Numbered from the stretch's first letter, positions 43,837 through 57,015 are shown. The stretch: 64,000 nt of DNA from Spirochaetae bacterium HGW-Spirochaetae-4 (GCA_002839335.1 PGXU01000009.1:1-64000); one strand, 5' to 3'. Made by a program: numbers and translations. The notes: generated from the sequence alone by a model not told the origin.

Positions 43837-44110
43837 ACATTATAATCCCTTTTTTAATATAATCAATATGAAGTTCCCATTTTGGGATATTTATTCTACT
43901 TTGTTACCTATCCCCAAACGTCATACAACAGTCGTGCTATGAAAATTACTAAAACTCAAGGTAGTTTTTCATGATTTGATAATCTATTTAATCAAATTTG
44001 CCCAGCCCAATGAAATTATTCTAGTATACTAAGACCGAATCTTGGACAGGAGGAGTCGAAAAGATACGAATAGAGTTGCCCACGATGCGTAACATGCGTA
44101 TGGTGGACCT

Positions 44111-44419
44111 ATGGGAAGGAAAAAACGGACATTTACTGGCGATTTCAAGTTAAAAGTAGCTTCTGAAGCACTCGCTGGCGAGAAGACCATTCAGGCAATT
44201 GCTGCGGAAAACAACATCTCTGTGAGTTTGGTAAGTACTTGGAAGAAGACTCTCCAACAGGAAGGGCCTCGGTTCTTCAATGAGAAATCGAAGATCCAGA
44301 AGGAGCTTGAACAGCACCTAGAGGAACTTGAACGGGAGAAACAGTTGCTACTTGAAGAGTATGGTAAGAGCCAACTGGAGAACGTGCTACTCAAAAAAAA
44401 ACTGAAAATCCAGGACTAA
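44111..44419 (+). CDS. IS3-family transposase OrfA
   Basis: 102 residues. N-terminal HTH ('TFTGDFKLKVASEALAGEKTIQAIAAENNISVSLVSTWKKTL') and a C-terminal leucine-zipper-like helix 'LEQHLEELEREKQLLLEEYG'. Ends at TAA 44417 unless ribosomes slip at A9 (44393-44401), which joins it to OrfB. Confidence 0.92.
   Translation: MGRKKRTFTGDFKLKVASEALAGEKTIQAIAAENNISVSLVSTWKKTLQQEGPRFFNEKSKIQKELEQHLEELEREKQLLLEEYGKSQLENVLLKKKLKIQD
44393..44401 (+). promoter_or_regulatory. programmed -1 ribosomal frameshift site
   Basis: Nine consecutive A (AAA AAA AAA in the OrfA frame) just before the OrfA stop. Slippage by -1 continues into OrfB without a stop. Confidence 0.75.
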
Positions 44420-45321
44420 GAGATGAGCAGATCATCACTCCTGGGCTTTCGATCGAACTGCATGGTAAAACCTTTAGTATGGGTATTGCCGAGCAATGTC
44501 GCCTGTTAGGTGTATCGAGAAGTAGCTACTATTGGTGGCTTCGTCACAAGGATCAGATCAAGTTCTGTGATGATGAACTTGCGTTGGTACAGGTTGTTCT
44601 CAATTGGTGGACAGATCATCCTGCGACTGGGTACCAGAAACTGGCTCGACAATTACAGCAAGATGGGTATGAACGAGCAACTGAGAAGCGGGTAAGAAAG
44701 ATTATGAGACGACTGGGGATTCGTGGTATTTCTCCTAAACCGAACACCTCTCGACAAGGGAAAGGAAAGCAACATAAGAAGTATCCCTACCTATTGAGAG
44801 GAAAGAAGATACGGCATGTGAACCAAGTCTGGGCAACAGATATCTCCTACGTGAGGCTTCCCAGTGGTATGGTCTACGTGGTGGCCATCATCGATCTGTT
44901 TAGCCGTAAGATTTTATCCCATCGGGTAAGTAATACTATGGATGTGGCGTTCTGCAAGGAATGTCTGTATGAAGCAATTGATCAGTATGGTGTACCGGCC
45001 ATTTTTAATAGTGATCAAGGCAGCCAATTTACTAGCATTGAGTTCCTAGCAATCCTTGAGCATCTAAAAGTTGAAATAAGCATGGATGGAGTCGGCAGGT
45101 GTCTGGATAACGTATTCATGGAGAGAACGTGGCGAACCCAAAAATATGAACATATCTTCCTTCACGACTACCGGACTCTCGGTGAGTTGAGAAGGGGCTT
45201 GAAGGGCTTCATTGATTTCTTTAATGGAGAAAGGTTGCATCAAGGGTTGGCATATCAAACTCCAGATGCAGTCTATTATGGAGCATTTCCAATCAAGGAA
45301 ATGGAACAACGGGTGGCTTGA
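44401..45321 (+). CDS. IS3-family transposase OrfB (DDE), read by -1 frameshift
   Basis: The frame continues from the A9 run as TENPGLRDEQIITPGLSIEL, then 'HGKTFSMGIAEQCRLL'. The catalytic core has the DDE residues in 'VWATDISYVRLPSGMVYVVA', 'IFNSDQGSQFTS' and 'NVFMERTWRTQKYE'. An internal ATG at 44479 exists, but the frameshifted fusion is the likely active transposase. It appears intact. Confidence 0.92.
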   Translation, partial: TENPGLRDEQIITPGLSIELHGKTFSMGIAEQCRLLGVSRSSYYWWLRHKDQIKFCDDELALVQVVLNWWTDHPATGYQKLARQLQQDGYERATEKRVRKIMRRLGIRGISPKPNTSRQGKGKQHKKYPYLLRGKKIRHVNQVWATDISYVRLPSGMVYVVAIIDLFSRKILSHRVSNTMDVAFCKECLYEAIDQYGVPAIFNSDQGSQFTSIEFLAILEHLKVEISMDGVGRCLDNVFMERTWRTQKYEHIFLHDYRTLGELRRGLKGFIDFFNGERLHQGLAYQTPDAVYYGAFPIKEMEQRVA

Positions 45322-45367
45322 TTTTCGTATGATTTCAAACCAACTGTCTAGACAAAGGGCTTAGGTC

Positions 45368-45589
45368 AGAAGTGCCCCGAAGCAAGTGATTAGATTACGT
45401 GAGAAATACAAAGATATTATCGACAATTCGTTTGTCCTATCGAAGGAAATTAGATTCACTAGCCCTTCTGCAGCCGCAGGTTTTGTTGGAGGGGCTAGTC
45501 TAAACGGCAATGATTATTGGGTCACTGACGATGGGGCAACGCTGGGGCAATATTTGACTGAAGAACCTCTACCGAAAGAAAATTGCTAA
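45368..45589 (+). pseudogene. C-terminal remnant of a DUF4357 domain protein
   Basis: Reads 'EIRFTSPSAAAGFVGGASLN', then 'GNDYWVTDDGATLGQYL', the DUF4357 pattern that often follows a GIY-YIG nuclease domain. The N-terminal part is missing; the insertion sequence ends directly upstream, and nothing matching is seen on its left side, so there was also a deletion. Confidence 0.7.
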
Positions 45590-45609
45590 TTCAATGCTCT
45601 AACTTCAAC

Positions 45610-45774
45610 CTATTTATGTTTCCATTTATTCCCAGGTTTGCTAGTGGGCGGGAGTCTATCACCTGGATCAATTTTTACCACTTTTGGTTTTGGCAAATCT
45701 CCTCCAAGTGGACCGGTTTCAATATATTTGCCAGGCTTCTGATTGTCTTCTCCCGGCTTATGTAATTTTCCCAT
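45610..45774 (-). CDS. YjzC-like small protein
   Basis: 54 residues starting MGKLHKPGEDNQKPGKYIET, with a strong GAAGGAGG site that favours this ATG over one at 45813. The pattern 'KPG....PGKYIETGPLGG....PK.VKIDPGDRLPPT...GNKWKHK' matches YjzC of Bacillus and its relatives, a family of unknown role. It follows the YbjQ-like gene on the same strand by 28 bases. Confidence 0.7.
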   Translation of the reverse strand: MGKLHKPGEDNQKPGKYIETGPLGGDLPKPKVVKIDPGDRLPPTSKPGNKWKHK

Positions 45775-45802
45775 TTGACTGCCTCCTTCAAATAATTTTT
45801 GA

Positions 45803-46858
45803 TTAGTCATCATTCAACAGCACTTTAACTATAGATAATTCATTTCTCAAAATATTGATTACTTCTAAAGGTTGAACTTCGTTATCGAAAAATCCCAATC
45901 TGTTCTTGTTACACCGTCTACAATTGGAATGTTTAGTTGAGTTGATCTTCCCACAGGCGCATTCCCAGTTCTTTCCATCGTCTTCTAGGGTGTCCATGGA
46001 ATATTTCTTTTCCAGAAGATGTATAAGATTCTGACAAGCAACTATATCTTCTGTAGAATACCCAGCTTTAATTATTTTTAATACATTCAGTGCAAAGTGT
46101 TGGAGGTCGACTGCATCTGAATAGAACCAATCAGCGATTTTACTAAAATCAACAAGGCCTAAACTATTCAGAATGGTCATTATGGCTTCTTCAAGTCTTA
46201 AATAGTCCGGAATATAAGGATAAAGAAAGGATGCTTGCTCTTTTGGCTCGAATTGACCTAGATACATTAATAAAGAAGAAAGGTTTTCGTTATAGTCTTC
46301 TCGGTTAAAAGTTGAAGACCCTTCTTGGATTGTGAATAGCGACTTAAGGAAAAATTTGGCTGCGTCTGGGAATTCACCATGTATAAGCATATCAATCTCA
46401 TCTTCTTCCAATTGAAAGTTCTGTTTAGTGTATCTTTTTTCGATTTCTTGCATCTTTATGTGTTTTTTTACATCTTCACCATCAACCATTAAATGTTGCA
46501 CTTCAGATCTTGTATCGTCTATCTTTTTTATTACTACTGCAGTACCTGCAACATTGATCATGAACATGGATTTTCCAGAGCCAGAAATTTCATCAGAATC
46601 TATTTTGATTCCAAGGATTGCGTTAGCACCTTTCTCTCTTGCTTTTTCAATTAAGCCTTCTAAGGCGTACTTGCGTAACTGGTATAGTTGTTTTTGGTAA
46701 CTACGCGATTTTCCTCCAAATATATCTGAGACACTAGCAAAGAAATCACTGAAAAGGTTTGTACCAACAACTATGCTTTCATAGACGATGTCTAAGTATT
46801 GAGTTATTTGATAACCATCAAATGAATTCGTTGTACTAAGTCTAATATTTGAAATCAT
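45803..46858 (-). CDS. YbjQ/UPF0145 domain with C-terminal zinc ribbon
   Basis: 351 residues after a GGAGGAATTTC site. Residues 1-~115 are YbjQ-like: 'LSTTNSFDGYQITQYLDIVYESIVVGTNLFSDF', then 'GLIEKAREKGANAILGIKIDSDE' and 'FMINVAGTAVVI', a pentameric beta fold. A middle helical region follows. The last ~50 residues hold a four-Cys RanBP2-like ribbon 'WECACGKINSTKHSNCRRCNKNRLGF'. Function unknown; the ribbon suggests RNA or protein binding. Confidence 0.8.
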   Translation of the reverse strand: MISNIRLSTTNSFDGYQITQYLDIVYESIVVGTNLFSDFFASVSDIFGGKSRSYQKQLYQLRKYALEGLIEKAREKGANAILGIKIDSDEISGSGKSMFMINVAGTAVVIKKIDDTRSEVQHLMVDGEDVKKHIKMQEIEKRYTKQNFQLEEDEIDMLIHGEFPDAAKFFLKSLFTIQEGSSTFNREDYNENLSSLLMYLGQFEPKEQASFLYPYIPDYLRLEEAIMTILNSLGLVDFSKIADWFYSDAVDLQHFALNVLKIIKAGYSTEDIVACQNLIHLLEKKYSMDTLEDDGKNWECACGKINSTKHSNCRRCNKNRLGFFDNEVQPLEVINILRNELSIVKVLLNDD

Positions 46859-47271
46859 GAAATTCCTCCAAGAGGTTTAACCATAACTCAGCTTATTATC
46901 CAGATAGGGATAAGTAAAGAGTAATAATCATCAAGTAATGATTGTAAAACGAGATATGCAATATTCAGAAAAATCTCAAATCGCTCACGGTAATCTAGGT
47001 GATACTAAAAGGGTTATAGCAATCAAGTTGGTGAAGATCCGACAATCTAACTAACTTCAACGTTTTCAAATTTTAATATCGGGGTACACTAATAGTTTTT
47101 TTCTATGTGTGCGTATCCCATGGTTTCAAAATACACAAGCTCTCAATTCCACGAGTCTTTCCTCGCTAAAAAGCTTTCTCCAATTAAGGCCGTGATGGCA
47201 TGAAAACCTCAAACTAGCGCATTCTAGAGGGGTTTTATGCCTATAGTACCTCTAAATCATTGTATCAAAAC
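46859..47271. other. intergenic stretch at the island edge
   Basis: AT-rich, no supported gene. Near its left-to-right end (47202-47236) AAAACCTC...GAGGGGTTTT can fold into a hairpin, a possible terminator for either side. The truncated radC gene begins at 47272. Confidence 0.35.
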
Positions 47272-47772
47272 CTACGCAAAGACCTCCCGCGGATGTACAA
47301 GCGTATGGTTCACCAGTCCGATCGATACGACCTGTACTCCAATGATTTCGTGTGCTCCATTGAGCGAGACACAAAGGAAATACTCCTGTGGCCGGTTTCC
47401 ATAATGCCGAATGAGCGGATATACGTCGGATGGGAAAATCACCTGTTTCCGCTTTGCGGGTAACCGTCGGCGACCCAATTCCAAGGCGGCGCACACAAGG
47501 GTAGCCTTGGCCATTCCCATCCCATCGATCTTGATCAGATCCTCGATCAATATTTCGCTATCGCCTCGTGTCCGATCCAATAAGTCCAGGATATCCTTGG
47601 CAAGGATCGGAACAGGTTTCCTGCTGGTCCCCGATCCAAGAAGGATCGAAAGCAATTCATTGTCAGACAATGCTGTGGAGCCATTGATTTGCAGCTTTTC
47701 GCGGGGACGTTGCTCTAAAGGCAACTCTTTGATTCCGCTTTCCAACGCTGGTGGTTCATTGTATTTTCTCAT
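47272..47772 (-). pseudogene. radC-like gene lacking the catalytic JAB domain end
   Basis: 166 residues from ATG 47772. The N-terminal helix-hairpin-helix part ('LPLEQRPREKLQINGSTALSDNELLSILLGSGTSRKPV', 'LIKIDGMGMAKATLVCAALELGRR') and the start of the JAB domain ('YFLCVSLNGAHEIIGVQVVSIGLVNHTLVHPREVFA') are intact. It stops just where 'DA....AII.HNHPSG' with the zinc ligands should follow. The cut coincides with the edge of the AT-rich island, so an insertion or deletion probably removed the end. Confidence 0.8.
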
Positions 47773-47867
47773 ATAGGATATACGCACGGGATTTTGGTAT
47801 TGCTTCGTAAATTTTTGAAAAAACTCAGTGGGATGGAGGGGTGTATCTGATGATTGTTTTTTTCACA

Positions 47868-47878
47868 GGTGATATACT
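47868..47878 (+). promoter_or_regulatory. extended -10 promoter of the kamA operon
   Basis: TGA-TATACT fits an extended -10 (TGnTATAAT); no close -35 at 17 bases. Located about 87 bases before the GTG start of the aminomutase gene. Confidence 0.4.
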
Positions 47879-47964
47879 CGGAATAGACGTGAGCGCTTGG
47901 ACGAAAAACGTGGAAAGCGAAGCTGGAAACGAGAATCGTTTGACAAGAGCGTAAGGAGCTAACC

Positions 47965-49206
47965 GTGGAGCAAGTCTCTGCGCAACGGATTTCGTCACTT
48001 GATGACGAACCTCCGCTTAAACAACCGGGTGTTGGAGTTACCTTTCCTTCGCCTAGTCCCAAACGGCCTGGAAACCCCAGGTCCTCCCTGTTCAGAAAAC
48101 ACTATTTTCCGAACACGAATTCGACCCAATGGAACGATTGGCATTGGCAACTTTTCCATAGGATCACGACGCTCGAGCAACTCTACCGATACGTAACGCC
48201 CACAGAGGATGAACGCCAGGCTTTGGAACGAAAGGATTGGCAGTTTCCGTTCTCTGTAACCCCCTATTATTTGAGTCTCATAGATCTCTCGGACCCTGAC
48301 GACCCGCTCAGGAAGACAGTCATTCCCCAAATCGCCGAAAGCCATATCTCTGCTGGAGAAGCTGCCGATCCGCTCAGCGAGGACCACACCAGTCCGGTTC
48401 CGGGCATCGTGCACCGCTACCCCGACAGGGCATTGTTTCTTGCCACCAGCTTCTGTTCGGTCTATTGTCGGTATTGTACCCGTTCACGCCTTGTGGGAGG
48501 GCATACCGAGACGTTGGAAGTGCAGTGGGACCGGGCATTCGAGTACCTTGCGCAACATACGGAAATCCGGGACGTCGTAATCTCAGGTGGCGATCCGTTG
48601 ACATTGTCGGATGAGCGTTTGGGCCAGTTGTTGGGCAGGTTGAAGCAGATCAAACATATCGAGATGGTCCGTATTGGAACCAAGGTGCCGTTTGTCATGC
48701 CCCAGCGCATCACCCCGGCATTGGTCAAGGTTCTCAAGACCTTCAGGCCCCTGTTCATCAATATCCATGCAACGCATCCGAATGAAATGACCGAGGAATC
48801 ACGGCAGGCCTGCAACCGGTTGGCGGATGCCGGTATTGTCCTGGGTAGCCAGACCGTACTGCTCAAGGGCGTCAACGATTCGATAGCGACAATGACCGAT
48901 CTGTTCCACAAGTTGCTTACCGTACGTGTCAAACCCTACTACCTGTTCCAATGTGATCCGATAGTCGGATCGGAGCATTTCAGGACTACGATCGCAAAGG
49001 GAAAGGAGATCATGGACGGCTTGCGGGGGCATACCAGCGGGTTTGCCGTTCCGTACTATGTGGTCGATACTCCCGGAGGTGGTGGAAAAGTCCCCATATT
49101 GCCCGATTATGAAGTCTCCCATGACGAAAAGGGACTCTGCCTTCGCAACTACGAGGGGAAGGAATTCATGTATCCCGATGTGGTTGCAACCCATGGAACA
49201 CTCTGA
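47965..49206 (+). CDS. kamA: KamA-family lysine 2,3-aminomutase (radical SAM)
   Basis: 413 residues, GTG start after TAAGGAG. The radical SAM cluster is Cys164-x3-Cys168-x2-Cys171 ('SFCSVYCRYCTRSRLVGG'). The PLP lysine is Lys375 in 'DTPGGGGKVP'. The two aspartates that bind the lysine side chain in known lysine aminomutases are kept (Asp331 in 'QCDPIVGSEHFR', Asp368 in 'VVDTPGG'), so L-lysine to L-beta-lysine is the predicted reaction. It heads an operon with two ATP-grasp enzymes and an acetyltransferase. Confidence 0.92.
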   Translation: MEQVSAQRISSLDDEPPLKQPGVGVTFPSPSPKRPGNPRSSLFRKHYFPNTNSTQWNDWHWQLFHRITTLEQLYRYVTPTEDERQALERKDWQFPFSVTPYYLSLIDLSDPDDPLRKTVIPQIAESHISAGEAADPLSEDHTSPVPGIVHRYPDRALFLATSFCSVYCRYCTRSRLVGGHTETLEVQWDRAFEYLAQHTEIRDVVISGGDPLTLSDERLGQLLGRLKQIKHIEMVRIGTKVPFVMPQRITPALVKVLKTFRPLFINIHATHPNEMTEESRQACNRLADAGIVLGSQTVLLKGVNDSIATMTDLFHKLLTVRVKPYYLFQCDPIVGSEHFRTTIAKGKEIMDGLRGHTSGFAVPYYVVDTPGGGGKVPILPDYEVSHDEKGLCLRNYEGKEFMYPDVVATHGTL

Positions 49207-49207
49207 G

Positions 49208-50194
49208 ATGCGCATAGGTCTGACCTTCGATCTCAAGGAGCGGTACTTGGCGGAAGGGTATAGGCCCGAGGAAGTGGCGGAGTTGGACAGCATCGAGACA
49301 ATCGATGCGATCGATGCCTCCCTGCGTACCTTGGGGTACCTGACTGAACGGATCGGCAATGTGAAGGATCTGGTCTTCGCCCTTGCACATGGCAAGCGTT
49401 GGGACCTTGTCTTCAACATAGCCGAGGGATTGCATGGACTGTGCCGTGAAGCACAGATTCCCGCACTGCTCGACGCTTATCGGATACCCTATGTATTCTC
49501 CGATTCGCTCACTCTCGCGGTGACCCTGCACAAGGGGTTGGCCAAGTCGGTGGTGCATGAACATGGTGTACCGACCGCTGCATACCGTGTTGTGCGCAAT
49601 CCCGGTGATTTGATCGGTCTGGACCTGCCGTATCCCTTGTTCATCAAACCGGTTGGCGGTGGTACCGGAATGGGTATCGACGGAAACTCGATCGTGCGGA
49701 ACCACAGACAACTGGAAAAGGGTGTGGGGCATTTGCTTGCCGCGCATGGCCAACCGGTATTGGTGGAGACCTATCTCAGCGGACGAGAGTTCACTGTAGG
49801 CATAACCGGAACTGCCGGACAGGCCTCGGTTGTCGGAATCATGGAGATCTCTGTCGACACGTCGAGTGACCAGGGGGTGTACTCCTATGCCTCCAAGCAA
49901 CATTACAAGGAATGTGCAGCCTATCGGACAGTGGATGGCCCGGTAGCAGCCCAGTGTGCAGAAGTCGCGCTCGGTGCCTGGAGGGCCTTGGATTGCCGGG
50001 ATGGCGGCAGGGTCGATTTGCGTATGGATGACCGGCAGGTTGTGAACTTCCTTGAGGTCAATCCGCTCGCGGGCCTGCATCCCATTGATTCCGATCTCCC
50101 CATCCTCGCGGGTATGGCTGGAATCGGGTATACCCAGTTGATTGGGCGGATCATGGACTCGGCTTGTCTTCGGTTGGAGAAGATACATGGCTAG
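49208..50194 (+). CDS. ATP-grasp ligase 1 (D-Ala-D-Ala ligase-like)
   Basis: 328 residues from ATG 49208, two bases after the kamA stop (an ATG at 49193 is also in frame). The ATP-grasp fold shows 'PYPLFIKPVGGGTGMGIDGNSIV' (nucleotide loop), 'VLVETYLSGREFTVGITG' and the metal site 'DLRMDDRQVVNFLEVNPLAGL' (E..N). The N-terminus 'DLVFNIAEGLHGLCREAQIPALLD' is D-Ala-D-Ala ligase-like. Position with kamA argues for ligation of a beta-lysine or related amino acid in place of cell-wall D-Ala. Confidence 0.9.
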   Translation: MRIGLTFDLKERYLAEGYRPEEVAELDSIETIDAIDASLRTLGYLTERIGNVKDLVFALAHGKRWDLVFNIAEGLHGLCREAQIPALLDAYRIPYVFSDSLTLAVTLHKGLAKSVVHEHGVPTAAYRVVRNPGDLIGLDLPYPLFIKPVGGGTGMGIDGNSIVRNHRQLEKGVGHLLAAHGQPVLVETYLSGREFTVGITGTAGQASVVGIMEISVDTSSDQGVYSYASKQHYKECAAYRTVDGPVAAQCAEVALGAWRALDCRDGGRVDLRMDDRQVVNFLEVNPLAGLHPIDSDLPILAGMAGIGYTQLIGRIMDSACLRLEKIHG

Positions 50195-51167
50195 GAACGT
50201 GTTGCTTTTGCATGATATGGTCTCCGCCCACGCCCCGCCCGATGAACTGGACACCTTGGACCAGTTGGTTGCGGTGGAATCCGCGTTGCACGCCTTGGGG
50301 TGCGAAACCACAAGAAAGCCATTCGACGGGGACTTGCTCGCACTTGAGCGTCACTTGCGGACCAATCGGTTCGATGTGGTGTTCAACCTCGTTGAAACCT
50401 ACCACGGTTCACGGTTCCTCCACCTCATACCGCTCCTCTGCGAACAGCTGGGCGTACCGGTTACCGGAGGGAATTCGGAATCGTTGTTCCTCACCAGCGA
50501 CAAGTTGCTGGCAAAACGGCTGTTGGTCCTGGCAGGTATTCCCACTCCCCAGTGGGTTACCCGAGTCAACCGCGACCAGTGGAGTTCATTCCTGGGTCAG
50601 CGGTTGCTTTGCAAACCGAGGGGTGAGGAGGCTTCTGTCGGTATCGACGATGCCTCGGTCCTCGTCTGCGACACCTTGTATGAATTGGAAAGCTTGGTGG
50701 AACGTGCCGATGCCGAGGGCCTCCTGGTAGAGCGCTTCATTGATGGACGTGAATACAATATTTCCATTCTCCCGAGCGATGGGAGGCCGGAAGTGTTGCC
50801 GATAGCCGAAATGGTGTTTTCCGATTATCCTCCAGACAAGCCGAAAATTGTAGGGTATGAGGCAAAATGGCTCGAAGATTCGTTTGCCTACACCCATACG
50901 GTCCGCTCCTTTGGGGTCGAGGGCAACGATGCGGCCTTGGCCGGGAGGTTGCATGTGGTTGCCGAGGATACGTGGCGCCTGTTCGGTGGCAACGGGTACG
51001 CCCGGGTCGACCTGCGGCTCGACGGGCAGGGCAACGTGTTTGTCCTGGAGTTGAATGCGAACCCTTGTATTTCCCATGACAGCGGATTCTGCGCGGCGGC
51101 GAACGAGGCCGGATATACCTACAACCAGATGATCGAAGCTATCGTACAGGAGGCTCTCCGTGGGTGA
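50187..51167 (+). CDS. ATP-grasp ligase 2 (D-Ala-D-Ala ligase-like)
   Basis: 326 residues starting MARNVLLLHDMVSAHAPPDE, overlapping ligase 1 by 8 bases. Homologous in layout to ligase 1: 'DVVFNLVETYHGSRFLHLIPLLCEQLGVPVTGG', 'RLLCKPRGEEASVGIDDASV', 'LLVERFIDGREYNISIL' and 'YARVDLRLDGQGNVFVLELNANPCI'. Two ligases in series suggest two successive peptide-type bonds, or different substrates. Confidence 0.9.
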   Translation: MARNVLLLHDMVSAHAPPDELDTLDQLVAVESALHALGCETTRKPFDGDLLALERHLRTNRFDVVFNLVETYHGSRFLHLIPLLCEQLGVPVTGGNSESLFLTSDKLLAKRLLVLAGIPTPQWVTRVNRDQWSSFLGQRLLCKPRGEEASVGIDDASVLVCDTLYELESLVERADAEGLLVERFIDGREYNISILPSDGRPEVLPIAEMVFSDYPPDKPKIVGYEAKWLEDSFAYTHTVRSFGVEGNDAALAGRLHVVAEDTWRLFGGNGYARVDLRLDGQGNVFVLELNANPCISHDSGFCAAANEAGYTYNQMIEAIVQEALRG

Positions 51168-51645
51168 ATTGTGGTTTCGGGACGAGCCCGACTATGCCGA
51201 TGTAGCCAAAGTCGAATCGCTGCTCAAAAGGACCGCCTTCTTTTCTCCGGATGAGGAGGAGATCGGGATCTCTTTGGTTGCAGAACGGTTGGAGAAGGGC
51301 CTTTCCTGCGGATACCTGTTCGTATTCGCCGAACTGGATGGCTCCCTGGTCGGATACTCGTGTTACGGACCGATTCCGGGAACCTTGGACGGCCATGATT
51401 TGTATTGGATAGCTGTCGATCCCGACAGGCAGGGCAAAAGATACGGCAGCGCGATACTGGATGAGACCGAGAAGCGGGTGCTTGCTGCGGGAGGCAAACG
51501 GTTGTATGCCGAAACATCCTCCACGGACCTGTATGCCCCGACACGTGCCTTCTATGAACGGAATGAATTTTTCTTGGAAGGTCGCCTGGCCGATTATTAT
51601 GCACCGGGTGACGACAAGATGCTGTACGTGAAGCGCCTTGTGTAA
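51160..51645 (+). CDS. GNAT-family N-acetyltransferase
   Basis: 161 residues, GTG start after CAGGAGG, overlapping ligase 2 by 8 bases. The acetyl-CoA site is 'DLYWIAVDPDRQGKRYGSAILDETE' (R/QxxGxG/A type 'RQGKRYGSA') and 'YAPTRAFYERNEFFLEGRLADYY' is the C-terminal part. In other organisms KamA plus an acetyltransferase (AblB) makes N-epsilon-acetyl-beta-lysine, an osmolyte. Here the acetyl group may go on a ligated product. Confidence 0.9.
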   Translation: MGELWFRDEPDYADVAKVESLLKRTAFFSPDEEEIGISLVAERLEKGLSCGYLFVFAELDGSLVGYSCYGPIPGTLDGHDLYWIAVDPDRQGKRYGSAILDETEKRVLAAGGKRLYAETSSTDLYAPTRAFYERNEFFLEGRLADYYAPGDDKMLYVKRLV

Positions 51646-51668
51646 ACCGTTTTCAGATCACTGGATTC

Positions 51669-53030
51669 CTAGATTACGGTCTTGGATTTCCAAGAACCCT
51701 TTACGAACCGTGTGACGAAGCAGGTGGCGCGGAACAACCAGTCGAAATACATGGCAAACCAAATACCATGCAATCCGAGACCAAAGTATTTGCCCAGCAC
51801 ATAACTCAGGCCGACCCTGAACACCCACATGCTTGCGATTGAGACGGTCATGGTGTATTTCACATCTCCCGAGGCTCTCAATACCTGGGGGAGGGTGAAC
51901 GAGACCGGCCAGATGACCGCATTCACAACAAACAGGATTTTCAAAATCCCTATAGCCAATGTCGTCGATGCCGCACTCAAATTGAACAGGCCCACCATGG
52001 ATTCTGTCGCTATGAATAGTACAGCGGCAAGGCCCGCCAACGTCACATACGTAATCTTCAACAGTTTTCGGGCGTAGTAGGCCGCTTGTTCCTTCTCGCC
52101 CGCTCCCATGCATTGTCCGACCACCGTGATGGTTGCCAATCCGATCGCCCCTCCTGGGATGTTTGTCATGGATGCAAGGGTGTTCGCTATCGCGTTGGCT
52201 GCCAGCGCGGTTGTTCCGAATGTTGCGGTGAGGCTCTGCACCAGTATCTTGCCGATATGGAAGATGCCGCTTTCCAAGCCGTTGGGGATGCCGATGCGGA
52301 GGATACGGCGGATCATGGACCAGTCGAGTTTGATGTGCAGCAACCGGTCGATCCGAATCCGATCCCCCTTCTTGACCAACAAGGTCAGCATGATGGCTGC
52401 CGATAGGATTCTCGCTGCCAAGGTCGCGATTCCCGCACCCAACACACCCAGTCCTGCTATGTAGATGAGGATTGCGTTTCCCAGGATATTGCTGATCGTC
52501 ATGACCACCGATACCTGCATGGATATACGGCTGTTGCCCATCGCCCTGAAGAGGGCCGCACCAGAATTGTACAAGCCGAGGAACGGGTAGGAGAGTGCTG
52601 TCAAGGCGAAATAGGTCTGTGCTTGGCGCATGACATCGCGGTCCAAATCTCCATACAGGGCCCCTAGGATAACATTATTGAACAGCAGGAAGGTTGTCAT
52701 GAACAGCAAGGCCACGAATGTGGTCGAGTAGATGAGTTGCTTTGCGGCATCACCCGCTTTTTGGGAGTTCCGCTGGCCTATGTACTGTGCGACGACAACA
52801 GCACCTCCCGCGGCAAGGGCCGAGAAAAGGAACAGGAAGAGGTTGTTGATGGAATCGACAAGCGCGATGCTTGAAACGGCGGCCTCACCTACGGAGGAGA
52901 TCATGATGGTGTCGGCGAATCCCACCGAAACATCCAACATCCTTTCTATCACCAAAGGGAGGATAAGGGAACCGAGTTGTCTATTCGAAAAAAGCCTAGG
53001 TTGCAACGGAGAAGATTCTGCAGAGAACAA
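51669..53030 (-). CDS. MATE-family efflux transporter
   Basis: 453 residues, TTG start, about 12 membrane spans. 'PLVIERMLDVSVGFADTIMISSVGEAAVSSIALVDSI' is the typical MATE opening, and the internal repeat '...LVQSLTATFGTTALAANAIANTLASMTNIPGGAIGLATITVVGQCMGAGEKEQA' is diagnostic. It exchanges drugs or metabolites for Na+ or H+. It converges on the kamA operon (24-base gap); export of the operon product is possible but not shown. Confidence 0.93.
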   Translation of the reverse strand: MFSAESSPLQPRLFSNRQLGSLILPLVIERMLDVSVGFADTIMISSVGEAAVSSIALVDSINNLFLFLFSALAAGGAVVVAQYIGQRNSQKAGDAAKQLIYSTTFVALLFMTTFLLFNNVILGALYGDLDRDVMRQAQTYFALTALSYPFLGLYNSGAALFRAMGNSRISMQVSVVMTISNILGNAILIYIAGLGVLGAGIATLAARILSAAIMLTLLVKKGDRIRIDRLLHIKLDWSMIRRILRIGIPNGLESGIFHIGKILVQSLTATFGTTALAANAIANTLASMTNIPGGAIGLATITVVGQCMGAGEKEQAAYYARKLLKITYVTLAGLAAVLFIATESMVGLFNLSAASTTLAIGILKILFVVNAVIWPVSFTLPQVLRASGDVKYTMTVSIASMWVFRVGLSYVLGKYFGLGLHGIWFAMYFDWLFRATCFVTRFVKGSWKSKTVI

Positions 53031-53205
53031 TGGATTTTTCCTTGACCCGGGTCATCGCATAGCACGATGGCGTGATACTCCAGTGTGCTCCTTTTCACCG
53101 ACTAAAGCAAGATGGACTTGGAAAGTTGGCGTATGTATCGGAGGTTGCATTGTCACGTAAATGTACTATAATTGTCTTATATGTATTGAGAGGGAGGCAA
53201 ATAAC

Positions 53206-53682
53206 GTGAAGAAGATAATCCTCTGTACGGTATGCTTGCTGGTTGTGATGACAGGCGCTTTCGGTAGCAGTCCGGATTACACGTGGGCTCTTGGCCTCTC
53301 GGCGATTGCTCCCGGGATGCCGGTGGCCGCAAAGGGCGTGTGGCAGTCCCATGGGTGGGGAGTACAGGTCGAGGCGAATTATTTCTATGCACTCGGCATG
53401 TTCAGGCTTGACGGCCGGCGTATGATCAAAACAAAGGGACCATGGAGTGCCTATGGATTTGTCGGAGTCACCGCCAACCACTTCAACGACGGCTCGGATA
53501 TCAACAATACCCTATGGGCCGATGTTGGAGCAGCGGGAACAGTCAAGTTTGGAAAGAACCGACGTTTTGAGATCGGTATGGAAGGTGGGTTGCTCATTCC
53601 GTTCTACAGCAATATGGGACTGGAGCAATATGAGGATACCGGTTTCATGGTCGCAAACCTGTTCGCACTTTGGTGGTGGTGA
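53206..53682 (+). CDS. small secreted / outer-membrane-like protein
   Basis: 158 residues, GTG start after GAGGGAGG. Signal peptide 'MKKIILCTVCLLVVMTGAFG', then beta strands with alternating aromatics ('VQVEANYFYALGMFRLDGR', 'GPWSAYGFVGVTANHF', 'GMEGGLLIPFYSNMG') ending 'LFALWWW'. The final aromatic residue supports an outer-membrane barrel. No family recognised. Confidence 0.65.
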   Translation: MKKIILCTVCLLVVMTGAFGSSPDYTWALGLSAIAPGMPVAAKGVWQSHGWGVQVEANYFYALGMFRLDGRRMIKTKGPWSAYGFVGVTANHFNDGSDINNTLWADVGAAGTVKFGKNRRFEIGMEGGLLIPFYSNMGLEQYEDTGFMVANLFALWWW

Positions 53683-53692
53683 GAGTCTGTTC

Positions 53693-54136
53693 CTACAGGG
53701 TTTTCGCCCGCCGGTACATGGTTAGGAATTCATCGACAGGGATTTGCGAGAGCATGTTCCCGATTGCTTCCAATGGAATGTCCTGAAGTGATGTGAATCG
53801 GACACAGGATTTTCCAAGGTTCGGTCGTTTCCCGATTTCATCGAAAGCTTTTTCGAGCTGTCCCCTACGTGCAGGATCGCTATAGATGGCGGACAGGTAC
53901 AACGAGCAATAGTTCTTCTGTGCTGCCAATGCCGCGAACATGAGCGGCTGGTGGTTGTACGTCGGGCCGGATACCTCCAGTGGGACTTCGTAAGAAATCA
54001 TCCCCCATCGCAAGGATTCGTCATACCCGGAGGGTATGGAGGCCAACAACCGTTCACGGGTTGCATCGACAAGAGTTTTCCATTGTTGGGGAATCTGCTG
54101 GAGATATTCGGCTACTGTCGTGGCATCGGTTCTCAT
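53693..54136 (-). CDS. DUF1801 (YdhG-like) protein
   Basis: 147 residues from ATG 54136 (an ATG at 54148 is an alternative). 'TVAEYLQQIPQQWKTLVDATRERLLASIPSGYDESLRWGMISYEVP' and 'AALAAQKNYCSLYLSA' are the DUF1801 fold. Function unknown; related to small SCP2/GyrI-like proteins. The frame runs further upstream through the tRNA, but those codons are not used. Confidence 0.8.
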   Translation of the reverse strand: MRTDATTVAEYLQQIPQQWKTLVDATRERLLASIPSGYDESLRWGMISYEVPLEVSGPTYNHQPLMFAALAAQKNYCSLYLSAIYSDPARRGQLEKAFDEIGKRPNLGKSCVRFTSLQDIPLEAIGNMLSQIPVDEFLTMYRRAKTL

Positions 54137-54185
54137 GACATAGAACATAGCCACGCACGTGCGAAAGGTCAATTGAAAAGCAAAT

Positions 54186-54259
<74 letters not shown>

Positions 54260-54269
54260 AAGCTTTTGT

Positions 54270-54298
54270 ATGCTATGGATACCGGAGGCCCTTGTCAA
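54270..54298 (-). promoter_or_regulatory. promoter of tRNA-Arg
   Basis: -35 TTGACA, exactly 17 bases, -10 TAGCAT on the minus strand, about 10 bases before the tRNA 5' end. Confidence 0.6.
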
Positions 54299-54535
54299 GA
54301 CATGGCAAGTCATAAAAATGAAATGGTTTTTGACTGGAAAGCGTATGGCAAAGTGAAATTTATTCTGATTATGACATAAGTTGGACTAGGGCAAAAATAT
54401 GTAAATAAATATAAAATAAACAAATAAGAAAATTGATATATATGGTACTTCCAATTACTATCTATCTCTTGACACCACTTCTGCTTTTTATTACCATTGG
54501 AATGTATTGGAAATCAGTCATCGGGAGGGTGTTGG

Positions 54536-55096
54536 ATGCGTCGAATGGTACTGGCTTGCATAGTCATTGGAATCTTGATCGTACCAACGCTCTCTGCCCA
54601 ACGGAATCTGTTCAGCGAGACTATCCCGTTGCAAGGACATATCGAACTCCAGGAAAGGTTCTCCCTCGAGGTGAAGCCGCGGGTATTCTTCGTATTGAGC
54701 CAGGATATGGCCGGTACTACCCATGAGATCGCGACATATCAATTCTTCTCCAACAGCCCCGAGGTCGCCTATCAGATGAGACTTTCCCCCGGTTATGTGA
54801 CCCAACTTGGGGAGGGTGTGTTCGCTTTCCGAAACATTTCCGGAACAGGCGGGAATTCCGAAACACAGCCCATACCATTCAAACTGAGCGTAGTCAGTCA
54901 GGTGCACGATTCCTCATCCACAAACGATGCCTTTCGGGCAGTCCAGAAGGCTATCGGCCTTCGTGATGGATCCCGTTCGGAAGAGAAGGGGACAATATTC
55001 GTCACGTTCCCTTCCCAAAGCGACGGATTCAACCTCCAAAGCTTCACCTTTGGAACATATGAAGCCTCGATAGCGGTGGAAGTTTCAGCCGATTAA
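54536..55096 (+). CDS. secreted protein of unknown function
   Basis: 186 residues from ATG 54536 after GGGAGGG. Signal peptide 'MRRMVLACIVIGILIVPTLS', cleavage near A-Q. The mature part is beta-rich ('TIPLQGHIELQERFSLEVKPRVFFVL', 'FTFGTYEASIAVEVSAD'), like small pilus- or coat-type spirochaete secreted proteins. No named family. Confidence 0.65.
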   Translation: MRRMVLACIVIGILIVPTLSAQRNLFSETIPLQGHIELQERFSLEVKPRVFFVLSQDMAGTTHEIATYQFFSNSPEVAYQMRLSPGYVTQLGEGVFAFRNISGTGGNSETQPIPFKLSVVSQVHDSSSTNDAFRAVQKAIGLRDGSRSEEKGTIFVTFPSQSDGFNLQSFTFGTYEASIAVEVSAD

Positions 55097-55161
55097 GACT
55101 CCCAGTAGTGGTTTTTGCAGCATCATGCTATACTGGATCCACTACATTCGAGGAGGTCCCG

Positions 55162-56070
55162 ATGAAGCCGATTCTACTGGTTATGGCTGCAGGAATGGGA
55201 AGCCGATACGGCGGAATAAAGCAAATTGACGGTGTTGGAATGCACAATGAGGCATTGCTCGACTATTCGACATACGATGCCCTGAAAAGTGGTTTCGGTA
55301 AAATCGTATTCATAATCCGCAAGGATATTGAGAAGGACTTCAGGGAGCGGATATTCGATCGTATAGCCGCGAACTGCGACGCTACCTATGTTTTCCAGGA
55401 ACTCGATACCCTGCTTACCCCCGAACAGGTGAAAGCCTCGTCAGGTCGCAAGAAACCTTGGGGTACCGTTCACGCTGTCCTGAGCGCCAAACAAACGATC
55501 AATGCTCCCTTTTGTGTCATCAATAGCGACGATTATTACGGACGCGAAGCATACCAGATAATGGGAGGACATCTCGCATCGATCGAAAACGATTCGATTG
55601 AGCAAGCCATGGTGGGGTATGTCCTGAAGAATACCACCAGTCGCAGCGGCTCCGTTTCCCGTGCCGTCTGTACCGTCAAGGACGGGTACCTCGTTTCGAT
55701 GCGCGAAAACAAGAAGATATACCATGAAGGAGATCGGATCATCAGTACAATCGATGGTGAACAGCGGGTGCTCACCGGTGAAGAATGGGTCTCCATGAAC
55801 TATTTCGGCTTTTCACCAGCTGCGATTCCCTTCTTCCAGGACTATTTCGACAGATTCCTGGTTGACGCGATCTCGACCGAAAAGGAAGAGTGCTATCTGC
55901 CTGAAGGTGCCAGTCTTATGGTGAACCAGGGTGTCGGCAAGATGCGCTTCTATACCACCAATGAACGTTGGTTCGGCATGACGTACCAGGAAGACCGGCA
56001 AATTGTCAAGGATGAGATTGCCAAGAAGATTGCCCAACGGGTGTATCCCGAGAAATTGTGGAAGAATTGA
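55162..56070 (+). CDS. sugar-phosphate nucleotidyltransferase-like protein
   Basis: 302 residues starting MKPILLVMAAGMGSRYGGIK, with GAGGAGG upstream. 'LLVMAAGMGSRYGGIKQID' is the nucleotide-binding loop of NTP transferases (LAAGxGxRxxxxTPK-like, with a KQ variant). 'PWGTVHAVLSAKQTINAPFCVINSDDYYG' carries the metal-binding Asp pair. It resembles a spirochaete-specific branch of sugar nucleotidyltransferases; the sugar is unknown. Confidence 0.82.
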   Translation: MKPILLVMAAGMGSRYGGIKQIDGVGMHNEALLDYSTYDALKSGFGKIVFIIRKDIEKDFRERIFDRIAANCDATYVFQELDTLLTPEQVKASSGRKKPWGTVHAVLSAKQTINAPFCVINSDDYYGREAYQIMGGHLASIENDSIEQAMVGYVLKNTTSRSGSVSRAVCTVKDGYLVSMRENKKIYHEGDRIISTIDGEQRVLTGEEWVSMNYFGFSPAAIPFFQDYFDRFLVDAISTEKEECYLPEGASLMVNQGVGKMRFYTTNERWFGMTYQEDRQIVKDEIAKKIAQRVYPEKLWKN

Positions 56071-56101
56071 CCCGATTGTAGACACCATGCATTGTGGTTG
56101 G

Positions 56102-56126
56102 AAAACCGGGAATTCTCCCGGTTTTT
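56102..56126. terminator. bidirectional terminator
   Basis: AAAACCGGGA-ATTC-TCCCGGTTTTT: a perfect 6-bp core extended by A/T pairs, with a U-tract in both directions. Serves the converging nucleotidyltransferase and YitT genes. Confidence 0.9.
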
Positions 56127-56139
56127 CGCTAGTAGGATA

Positions 56140-57015
56140 TTACCGTTTGTCCATTGGGGAGAATCCTTCTCCCACAACCTCATAGGCCTCTTCAATGATC
56201 ATAAAGGCTTCCGGGTCGGATTCCTTGACGATTGTGTTCAGGCGTGAGATCTTCTGGTTCGGTATGACCGTCATCAGCACGGACTTGTCTTTCTTGGAAT
56301 ATATTCCCGTTCCCTTCAACAGTGTGCCACCGTGGCCCAGTTCCTCGACAATCCGCTTTGCAATCGCATCGTGGTGGTCGCTTACGATCAGTGCTGTCTT
56401 GGCATAGCGCGTTCCCATGTTCAACAATACGAAGTTGATGGAAACGCTGGTCACATACAAGGTGATGGTTGCGAACAGTGCGCTCTCAAGGCCGAAGGCG
56501 AACCCACCAGCCATAATCACCAAGCCGTCCACAATGAACAGCGAGGTTCCGACCGACAACGGTGTGTACTTGCTGACAATTTGCGCGGCGATATCTGTGC
56601 CACCGGTATTGGCTCCACCCTTGAGTACCAGGCCAGTGCCGAATCCGGCAAGGAATCCTCCAAACAGGGCCGACAACAGTGTATCGACAGAATCGGTGTA
56701 TTCCAGGAAACCCTCGAAACCGAACAGAACACCGAAGAGGGTGGTGAACAGGGAGAGCAGTATTGTGCCCAGTAGGGAAATGAACCCATATCGGGTACCG
56801 AATATCCGCAAGCCGGCGATGAAGAGGGGAAGGCTGAGCAGGAATATGCTGATGCCGACTTCGAAGTTGAACATATGGTACAGAATGACTGCGATACCGC
56901 TGACACCGCCACCAGCGAGCTTGGCCGGCGTTATGAAACCGGCGATTCCAACTGCAGTGACAATGGAGCCTCCGATAATGAGTGCATAATCGCGGACCCG
57001 ATACTTGGTTTTCAT
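56140..57015 (-). CDS. YitT-family membrane protein
   Basis: 291 residues: five or six membrane spans ('DYALIIGGSIVTAVGIAGFITPAKLAGGGVSGIAVILYHM', 'GFLAGFGTGLVLKGGANTGGTDIAAQIVSKY') and a C-terminal cytoplasmic DUF2179 domain ('TALIVSDHHDAIAKRIVEELGHGGTLLKGTGIYSKKDKSVLMTVI'). The 'GGANTGGTD' signature is diagnostic. Transport substrate unknown. Confidence 0.92.
   Translation of the reverse strand: MKTKYRVRDYALIIGGSIVTAVGIAGFITPAKLAGGGVSGIAVILYHMFNFEVGISIFLLSLPLFIAGLRIFGTRYGFISLLGTILLSLFTTLFGVLFGFEGFLEYTDSVDTLLSALFGGFLAGFGTGLVLKGGANTGGTDIAAQIVSKYTPLSVGTSLFIVDGLVIMAGGFAFGLESALFATITLYVTSVSINFVLLNMGTRYAKTALIVSDHHDAIAKRIVEELGHGGTLLKGTGIYSKKDKSVLMTVIPNQKISRLNTIVKESDPEAFMIIEEAYEVVGEGFSPMDKR

What the first reader, a model, noticed from the sequence alone, without database searches (positions are those of the whole stretch)
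47965..53030. Aminomutase, two ATP-grasp ligases, acetyltransferase and MATE exporter: a possible new beta-lysine conjugate pathway
Seen: kamA, two paralogous ATP-grasp ligases and a GNAT overlap or abut in one operon; a MATE exporter converges on it. KamA keeps both lysine-binding Asp residues, so beta-lysine is the likely first product. Known: KamA+AblB make N-acetyl-beta-lysine osmolyte. The two ligases are extra and suggest peptide-bond formation to beta-lysine, or another amino acid, followed by acetylation. I do not know this four-gene combination as a characterised pathway.
Basis: partly seen in the sequence, partly recalled or inferred. Interest (0 to 1): 0.85.

Follow-up and report, generated by a model that had tools for sequence, protein, structure and literature searches.

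The report
Conserved beta-lysine ligase-acetyltransferase operon
A spirochaete carries a tightly packed four-gene operon, found in the same order in many unrelated bacterial phyla, that by its enzymes should turn lysine into beta-lysine, join it to other amino acids and acetylate it, making a small molecule that nobody appears to have identified.

Summary
kamA, two Ddl-fold ATP-grasp ligases (31-32% identical) and a GNAT lie in one operon (1-bp gap, then 8-bp overlaps). A scan with ligase 1 gave 80 loci from many phyla; 57 hold kamA-lig1-lig2-gnat in this order, and 4 more have GNAT fused to lig2. A lig1-lig2 fusion also occurs. The KamAs form their own clade apart from AblA, yet keep the lysine-binding residues in 92 of 92 sequences. 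The ligases are not housekeeping Ddl: they fail every Ddl model, and the genome has a separate Ddl that passes one. The MATE is weakly tied: its adjacency is confined to close relatives and homologues occur without the operon. Best reading: synthesis of an acetylated beta-lysine di- or tripeptide, perhaps a compatible solute. Product, ligase substrates and role are inferred. No description was found in the held literature.

The parts
47965..49206 (+). kamA: radical SAM, PLP-dependent lysine-2,3-aminomutase-type enzyme (413 aa), own clade, short C-terminus
   Evidence: Pfam LAM_C/Radical_SAM; TIGR00238 KamA family 342.5 bits over cut-off 199.2, AblA model 457.1 bits below cut-off 525.4; C164/C168/C171, R173, D331, D368, K375 invariant in 92 of 92; separate clade
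49208..50194 (+). lig1: Ddl-fold ATP-grasp carboxylate-amine ligase (328 aa), invariant SDL motif at residues 295-297 in the second-substrate pocket
   Evidence: Pfam Dala_Dala_lig_C; AlphaFold2 model pLDDT 93, VIA-align Z 31.7 to DdlB 8evz (rmsd 2.8, 292 aligned); below every Ddl cut-off; residue conservation
50187..51167 (+). lig2: second Ddl-fold ATP-grasp ligase (326 aa), NxNPC motif; fused to GNAT in 5 other loci
   Evidence: Pfam Dala_Dala_lig_C; model pLDDT 93.8, Z 31.4 to DdlB 8evy (rmsd 3.0, 290 aligned); fusions
51160..51645 (+). gnat: GNAT N-acetyltransferase (161 aa), close relative of PDB 2R7H
   Evidence: Pfam Acetyltransf_1; hmmsearch of its alignment to 2r7h E 7.9e-50 over 154 residues
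51669..53030 (-). MATE transporter, convergent neighbour; conserved here only in close relatives, probably not a core member
   Evidence: Pfam MatE, TIGR00797 over cut-off; adjacent in the window and 6 relatives; 48-52% identical homologues in relatives without the operon

Best explanation
The four genes form a dedicated biosynthetic pathway. KamA moves the alpha-amino group of lysine to give beta-lysine (inferred from invariant active-site residues). Lig2 and Lig1, two Ddl-type ATP-grasp ligases, activate a carboxylate as acyl phosphate and join it to the amine of an amino acid, building a beta-lysine-containing di- or tripeptide (fold and catalytic residues shown, substrates inferred). The GNAT caps a free amine with acetyl, most likely the side-chain amine as AblB does (inferred). 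Lig2 and GNAT are the core after KamA: they can be fused, and some loci have kamA-lig2-gnat without lig1. In many other phyla a GNAT-acetylpolyamine-amidohydrolase fusion is added and could remove or exchange the acetyl group (inferred); in this spirochaete family a third ligase and second GNAT extend the pathway. The product is probably kept inside the cell, since no transporter is conserved; a neutral acetylated beta-amino-acid peptide acting as compatible solute is my favoured role (about 0.35). My confidence refers to a beta-lysine-derived, ligase-built, acetylated small molecule.
For: Same gene order in 57 of 80 loci across Spirochaetota, Bacteroidota, Desulfobacterota-type deltaproteobacteria, Planctomycetes, Ignavibacteria and others. 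Fusions lig1-lig2 (L096), lig2-GNAT (L069, L080, L115, L116, L127) and GNAT-HDAC-GNAT (L103; also L130) bind the members functionally. KamA residues for lysine carboxylate (R173 = R134), epsilon-amine (D331, D368 = D293, D330), PLP (K375 = K337) and the CxxxCxxC cluster are invariant in 92 of 92. Both ligases have the complete Ddl fold and keep the ATP/Mg and carboxylate-clamp residues. GNAT is homologous to 2R7H. The inserted HDAC domain is nearest to acetylpolyamine amidohydrolases, i.e. enzymes that deacetylate primary alkyl amines. A third ligase occurs only in operon-bearing relatives.
Against: No substrate or product is shown. KamA scores below NCBI's AblA cut-off and lacks the C-terminal extension of AblA, so its substrate could differ. 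No osmotic signal (riboswitch) was found near the operon in the window or in nine relatives. The GNAT is not AblB.
Confidence: 0.6

Rival explanations
1. KamA acts on another amino acid (arginine, ornithine, or a lysine derivative), so the pathway builds a conjugate of a different beta-amino acid.
For: KamA fails the AblA cut-off and forms a clade of its own; a GNAT-agmatinase fusion in L109 and the polyamine-type amidohydrolase hint at basic amino acids or polyamines in general.
Against: Both Asp residues that bind the lysine side-chain amine are invariant; glutamate and arginine aminomutase models score lower than AblA and lie far under their cut-offs.
Confidence: 0.15
2. The operon makes a secreted bioactive or signalling peptide, exported by the MATE.
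For: MATE is convergent with the operon in the window and six relatives; an MFS transporter gene sits inside the operon of L120; beta-lysine occurs in antibiotics (general knowledge).
Against: MATE is not next to the operon outside close relatives, and homologues of 48-52% identity exist in relatives without it. Very broad conservation of the enzyme set fits primary or stress metabolism better than a specialised antibiotic.
Confidence: 0.13
3. KamA and GNAT make plain N-acetyl-beta-lysine, and the ligases belong to another process such as cell-wall modification.
For: KamA plus an acetyltransferase is the known osmolyte recipe (PMC3543383; PMC9337991); the fold and sequence of the ligases are closest to Ddl.
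Against: lig2 is fused to GNAT and the ligases sit between kamA and gnat in all phyla; the genome has its own Ddl over cut-off; lig1 and lig2 fail all Ddl cut-offs.
Confidence: 0.08
4. Chance adjacency of unrelated genes.
For: None.
Against: Conserved order across phyla and gene fusions.
Confidence: 0.01

Closest known systems
N-epsilon-acetyl-beta-lysine osmolyte pathway (AblA/KamA lysine 2,3-aminomutase + AblB acetyltransferase) of methanogens and some bacteria
   Same: KamA-family aminomutase with lysine-binding residues plus an acetyltransferase in one operon
   Different: two (or three) Ddl-type ligases are added; KamA is a different clade without the AblA C-terminal extension; the GNAT matches no AblB model
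D-alanine--D-alanine ligase family (Ddl, VanA/C/G)
   Same: complete ATP-grasp Ddl fold, ATP/Mg and Arg carboxylate-clamp residues retained
   Different: all Ddl models score far under cut-off; the Leu282-type position of DdlB is an invariant Asp in Lig1 and Gly in Lig2; separate true Ddl in the genome
NAGGN (N-acetylglutaminylglutamine amide) solute synthesis, GNAT + ATP-grasp synthetase
   Same: idea of an acetylated, ligase-made amino-acid peptide as solute
   Different: no aminomutase, different ATP-grasp protein; resemblance is of logic, from general knowledge
PDB 2R7H, putative D-alanine N-acetyltransferase of the GNAT family
   Same: same GNAT family over its whole length
   Different: its name is a depositor's guess; the function is not known to me to have been tested
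Acetylpolyamine amidohydrolases
   Same: nearest solved relatives of the HDAC domain in the extended operons
   Different: fused to an N-terminal GNAT domain and embedded in a kamA-ligase operon; absent from the window's genome

Membership tests
AblA lysine 2,3-aminomutase | score over curated cut-off of TIGR03820 (525.4 bits) | tested here: not met
   457.1 bits; 13 true AblA of other spirochaetes score 584-785
AblA lysine 2,3-aminomutase | lysine-binding residues R134, D293, D330 and PLP Lys337 | tested here: met
   R173, D331, D368, K375 invariant in 92 of 92 (numbering)
AblA lysine 2,3-aminomutase | conversion of L-lysine to beta-lysine | not testable with these tools
   needs enzyme assay
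Glutamate 2,3-aminomutase | score over TIGR04368 cut-off (650 bits) and loss of the two Asp residues | tested here: not met
   416.1 bits; both Asp kept
AblA-AblB osmolyte pathway | AblB-type acetyltransferase next to the aminomutase | tested here: not met
   NCBIfam finds only weak RimI-type matches for the GNAT
D-alanine--D-alanine ligase (Ddl) | score over a curated Ddl model | tested here: not met
   Lig1 at most 136 and Lig2 at most 105 bits against cut-offs of 243 or more; the genome's own Ddl passes NF002528 with 280.5 over 262
D-alanine--D-alanine ligase (Ddl) | Ddl-type ATP-grasp fold with ATP/Mg residues | tested here: met
   Z 31.7 (292 aligned, rmsd 2.8) and 31.4 (290 aligned, rmsd 3.0) to DdlB; K, E, D, E, N residues invariant
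D-alanine--D-alanine ligase (Ddl) | uses D-alanine | not testable with these tools
   pocket positions differ, but no assay
EpmB (EF-P beta-lysylation) | score over TIGR03821 cut-off (369.3) | tested here: not met
   271.5 bits
Acetylpolyamine amidohydrolase (extended operons only) | HDAC domain nearest to that family | tested here: met
   top five PDB sequences are all acetylpolyamine amido-/aminohydrolases, E 2e-74 to 2e-59

The most novel reading that the evidence does not exclude
A widespread, undescribed class of bacterial solute or metabolite: acetylated beta-lysine peptides built by paired Ddl-type ligases and turned over by a GNAT-acetylpolyamine-amidohydrolase fusion, used by anaerobic and sediment bacteria of many phyla.
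Probability: 0.4. Interest if true: 0.82.

Novelty: new variant of a known kind. Interest (0 to 1): 0.64.

Why it matters
An operon this widely and strictly conserved should make a physiologically important metabolite, and it is at present annotated as stray 'lysine 2,3-aminomutase', 'D-alanine--D-alanine ligase' and 'GNAT', which misleads annotation of both cell-wall synthesis and lysine metabolism. Identifying the product would add a beta-amino-acid peptide pathway, new ATP-grasp ligases for beta-peptides, and possibly a new compatible solute in uncultured anaerobes. It also gives a testable function to the solved but unassigned GNAT structure 2R7H.

Tried and rejected
Housekeeping Ddl: rejected. 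MATE as core member: not supported. Riboswitch (sodium, c-di-AMP) upstream: none in window 44000-57000 or in nine related loci. Promoter/terminator scan: nothing above shuffled expectation. Rhizobial plasmid ATP-grasp proteins: about 30% identical, no kamA beside them in the two inspected. HDAC homologue in the window's genome: none. Agmatinase link: one fused case only, L109. Structure searches listed only Ddl-type ligases among the best rows for both ligases; this does not exclude other families. Literature: nine searches found no paper on the gene combination; some phrase searches are weak because the tool rejects commas. The 2009 amidoligase survey by Iyer and colleagues, which I remember as treating ATP-grasp gene neighbourhoods, is not held, so a prior mention there cannot be excluded.

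Full report
Check of the observation. The five genes are present at the stated positions. kamA (47965-49206) is followed after one base by lig1 (49208-50194); lig2 (50187-51167) and gnat (51160-51645) each overlap the gene before by 8 bases, and kamA, lig2 and gnat have clear Shine-Dalgarno sequences. The MATE gene (51669-53030) runs the other way and ends 23 bases from gnat. Pfam and NCBIfam confirm the families.

Genome and own paralogues. The window is contig C14 of a 3.6-Mb draft genome; its nearest named relative in the public set is 'Spirochaetae bacterium HGW-Spirochaetae-2', with lig1 95% identical. The genome holds a second KamA (C74, 41% identical), a true Ddl (C99) that passes NF002528 with 280.5 bits over 262, and a third ligase, ligC, on C39, 32% identical to Lig2. 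There is no HDAC-family gene.

Conservation in relatives. In 61 genomes (the window's own and 60 relatives), 14 have a lig1 orthologue of 48% identity or more. In 11 of the 14, the window's own included, kamA-lig1-lig2-gnat are complete; the other three lie on short or broken contigs, and only kamA-lig1 or kamA-lig1-lig2 could be read there. MATE follows convergently in the window and six of them. In three others (G004, G021, G024) that place is taken by ligC, with a second GNAT before it where this was read (L061). ligC of 46% identity or more occurs in 9 of the 14 operon-bearing genomes and in none of the 47 others; the random expectation would be about 1e-7, although the genomes are related, so this number is only a guide. 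By contrast, MATE homologues of 48-52% identity also occur in genomes without the operon. Across 247 Spirochaetota species lig1 is found in 27, in 16 of 125 genera.

Conservation across phyla. A scan of 84,980 species genomes with the lig1 alignment gave at least 562 related stretches; the best 80 were kept. They come from records named Spirochaetales, Bacteroidales, several deltaproteobacterial groups, Planctomycetes, Ignavibacteria, Gammaproteobacteria, Neomarinimicrobiota, WOR-3, Sumerlaeota and others; most are metagenome bins, so single names may be wrong, but isolates such as Desulfopila sp. IMCC35006 (L107) and Desulfocarbo indianensis (L101) are among them. Of the 80, 57 show kamA, lig1, lig2 and gnat in that order on one strand, and four more have GNAT fused to Lig2. 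lig1 was the bait, so its presence is by construction; the other three genes are not. Many of the rest are cut by contig ends.

Fusions and extra members. Lig2-GNAT fusions occur in L069, L080, L115, L116 and L127, and a Lig1-Lig2 fusion in L096. Clustering of neighbouring genes found only one further recurrent partner: a protein of about 580 residues in 21 loci, between lig2 and gnat, before lig1 or after gnat. It has an N-terminal GNAT domain and a C-terminal histone-deacetylase-type domain whose five nearest solved relatives are acetylpolyamine amidohydrolases. In L103 and L130 it is fused to the operon's GNAT. One locus (L109) has a GNAT-agmatinase fusion and one (L120) an MFS transporter inside the operon. 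In L179 and L183 the order is kamA-lig2-gnat without lig1, so Lig2 and GNAT look like the core and Lig1 like an extension.

KamA. The protein is 458-bit class for AblA, under its cut-off, and true AblA of spirochaetes score 584-785 bits. In a FastTree tree 90 operon KamAs fall together, with two lone KamAs (L170, L172) among them, apart from all 13 AblA (support 0.84, branch 0.23); one KamA outside (L177) was included by my sampling but is not in an operon. Operon KamAs end about 41 residues after the GGGGK motif, AblA 83-97. Still, the radical SAM cysteines, the carboxylate-binding Arg, both side-chain-amine-binding Asp and the PLP Lys are invariant in 92 of 92. The assignment of these roles in 2A5H is established knowledge of the C. 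subterminale enzyme; the conclusion that lysine is the substrate is an inference.

Ligases. Both AlphaFold2 models are good (pLDDT 93 and 93.8) and match Ddl over the full length (Z 31.7, 292 aligned, rmsd 2.8; Z 31.4, 290 aligned, rmsd 3.0). Sequence profiles also find Ddl first. ATP- and Mg-binding residues are invariant (Lig1 K109, K147, E187, D270, E283, N285; Lig2 K106, K143, E182, D275, N290, and E288 in 40 of 41), and so is the Arg that clamps the carboxylate of the second substrate in Ddl (R268, R273). Against the DdlB motif, the residue at Leu282 is an invariant Asp in Lig1 (D296) and an invariant Gly in Lig2 (G300); this mapping rests on the printed alignments with other Ddls and on my knowledge of DdlB numbering. 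It suggests amino-acid-like second substrates with a clamped carboxylate, and in Lig1 a basic group near the pocket. This is inference.

GNAT. Its profile matches PDB 2R7H at E 7.9e-50; the deposited name is 'putative D-alanine N-acetyltransferase', which I read as a guess from the neighbouring ligase. It is not AblB by NCBIfam.

Mechanism. Shown: operon, its conservation, fusions, folds, catalytic residues. Inferred with good support: KamA makes beta-lysine; Lig1 and Lig2 make amide bonds at ATP cost; GNAT acetylates an amine. Inferred weakly: the order of steps, the partner amino acids, the use of the amidohydrolase fusion for removing the acetyl group, and a role as compatible solute. For the last point the only arguments are the known use of N-acetyl-beta-lysine as osmolyte (PMC3543383, PMC9337991) and the lack of a conserved transporter.

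Novelty. No paper on this combination was found in nine searches, with the limits given under Tried and rejected. The enzyme kinds are known, the combination is not known to me; I rate it a new variant of a known kind.

Noticed in passing
L048:8879-10483 (window's genome, contig C39): Third Ddl-type ligase (ligC) convergent with a second GNAT; the ligase is found only in operon-bearing relatives and in some lies directly beside the kamA operon.
   Followed up: partly
window 47272-47787, - strand: radC, divergent from kamA, stops after 171 aa at 'REVFA'; no continuation with the JAB/HNHPSG part was seen in any frame, so it looks truncated.
   Followed up: partly
window 44111-45321: IS3-type insertion element with orfA and orfB (helix-turn-helix protein and DDE transposase).
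   Followed up: no
window 54186-54259, - strand: tRNA gene (Rfam RF00005, 66.1 bits).
   Followed up: no
L109:11653-13146: In-frame fusion of the operon GNAT with an agmatinase-family domain (220.9 bits over cut-off 174.3), seen once.
   Followed up: partly
L170 and L172: Lone KamA of the operon clade beside an SMC-like gene, without ligase or GNAT within the fetched stretch.
   Followed up: no
L179 and L183: kamA-lig2-gnat without lig1, suggesting Lig2 and GNAT are the core after KamA.
   Followed up: partly
L133 and L134: Rhizobial plasmids carry a lone ATP-grasp protein about 30% identical to Lig1, one near an MFS transporter and one near a CapA-family gene.
   Followed up: partly
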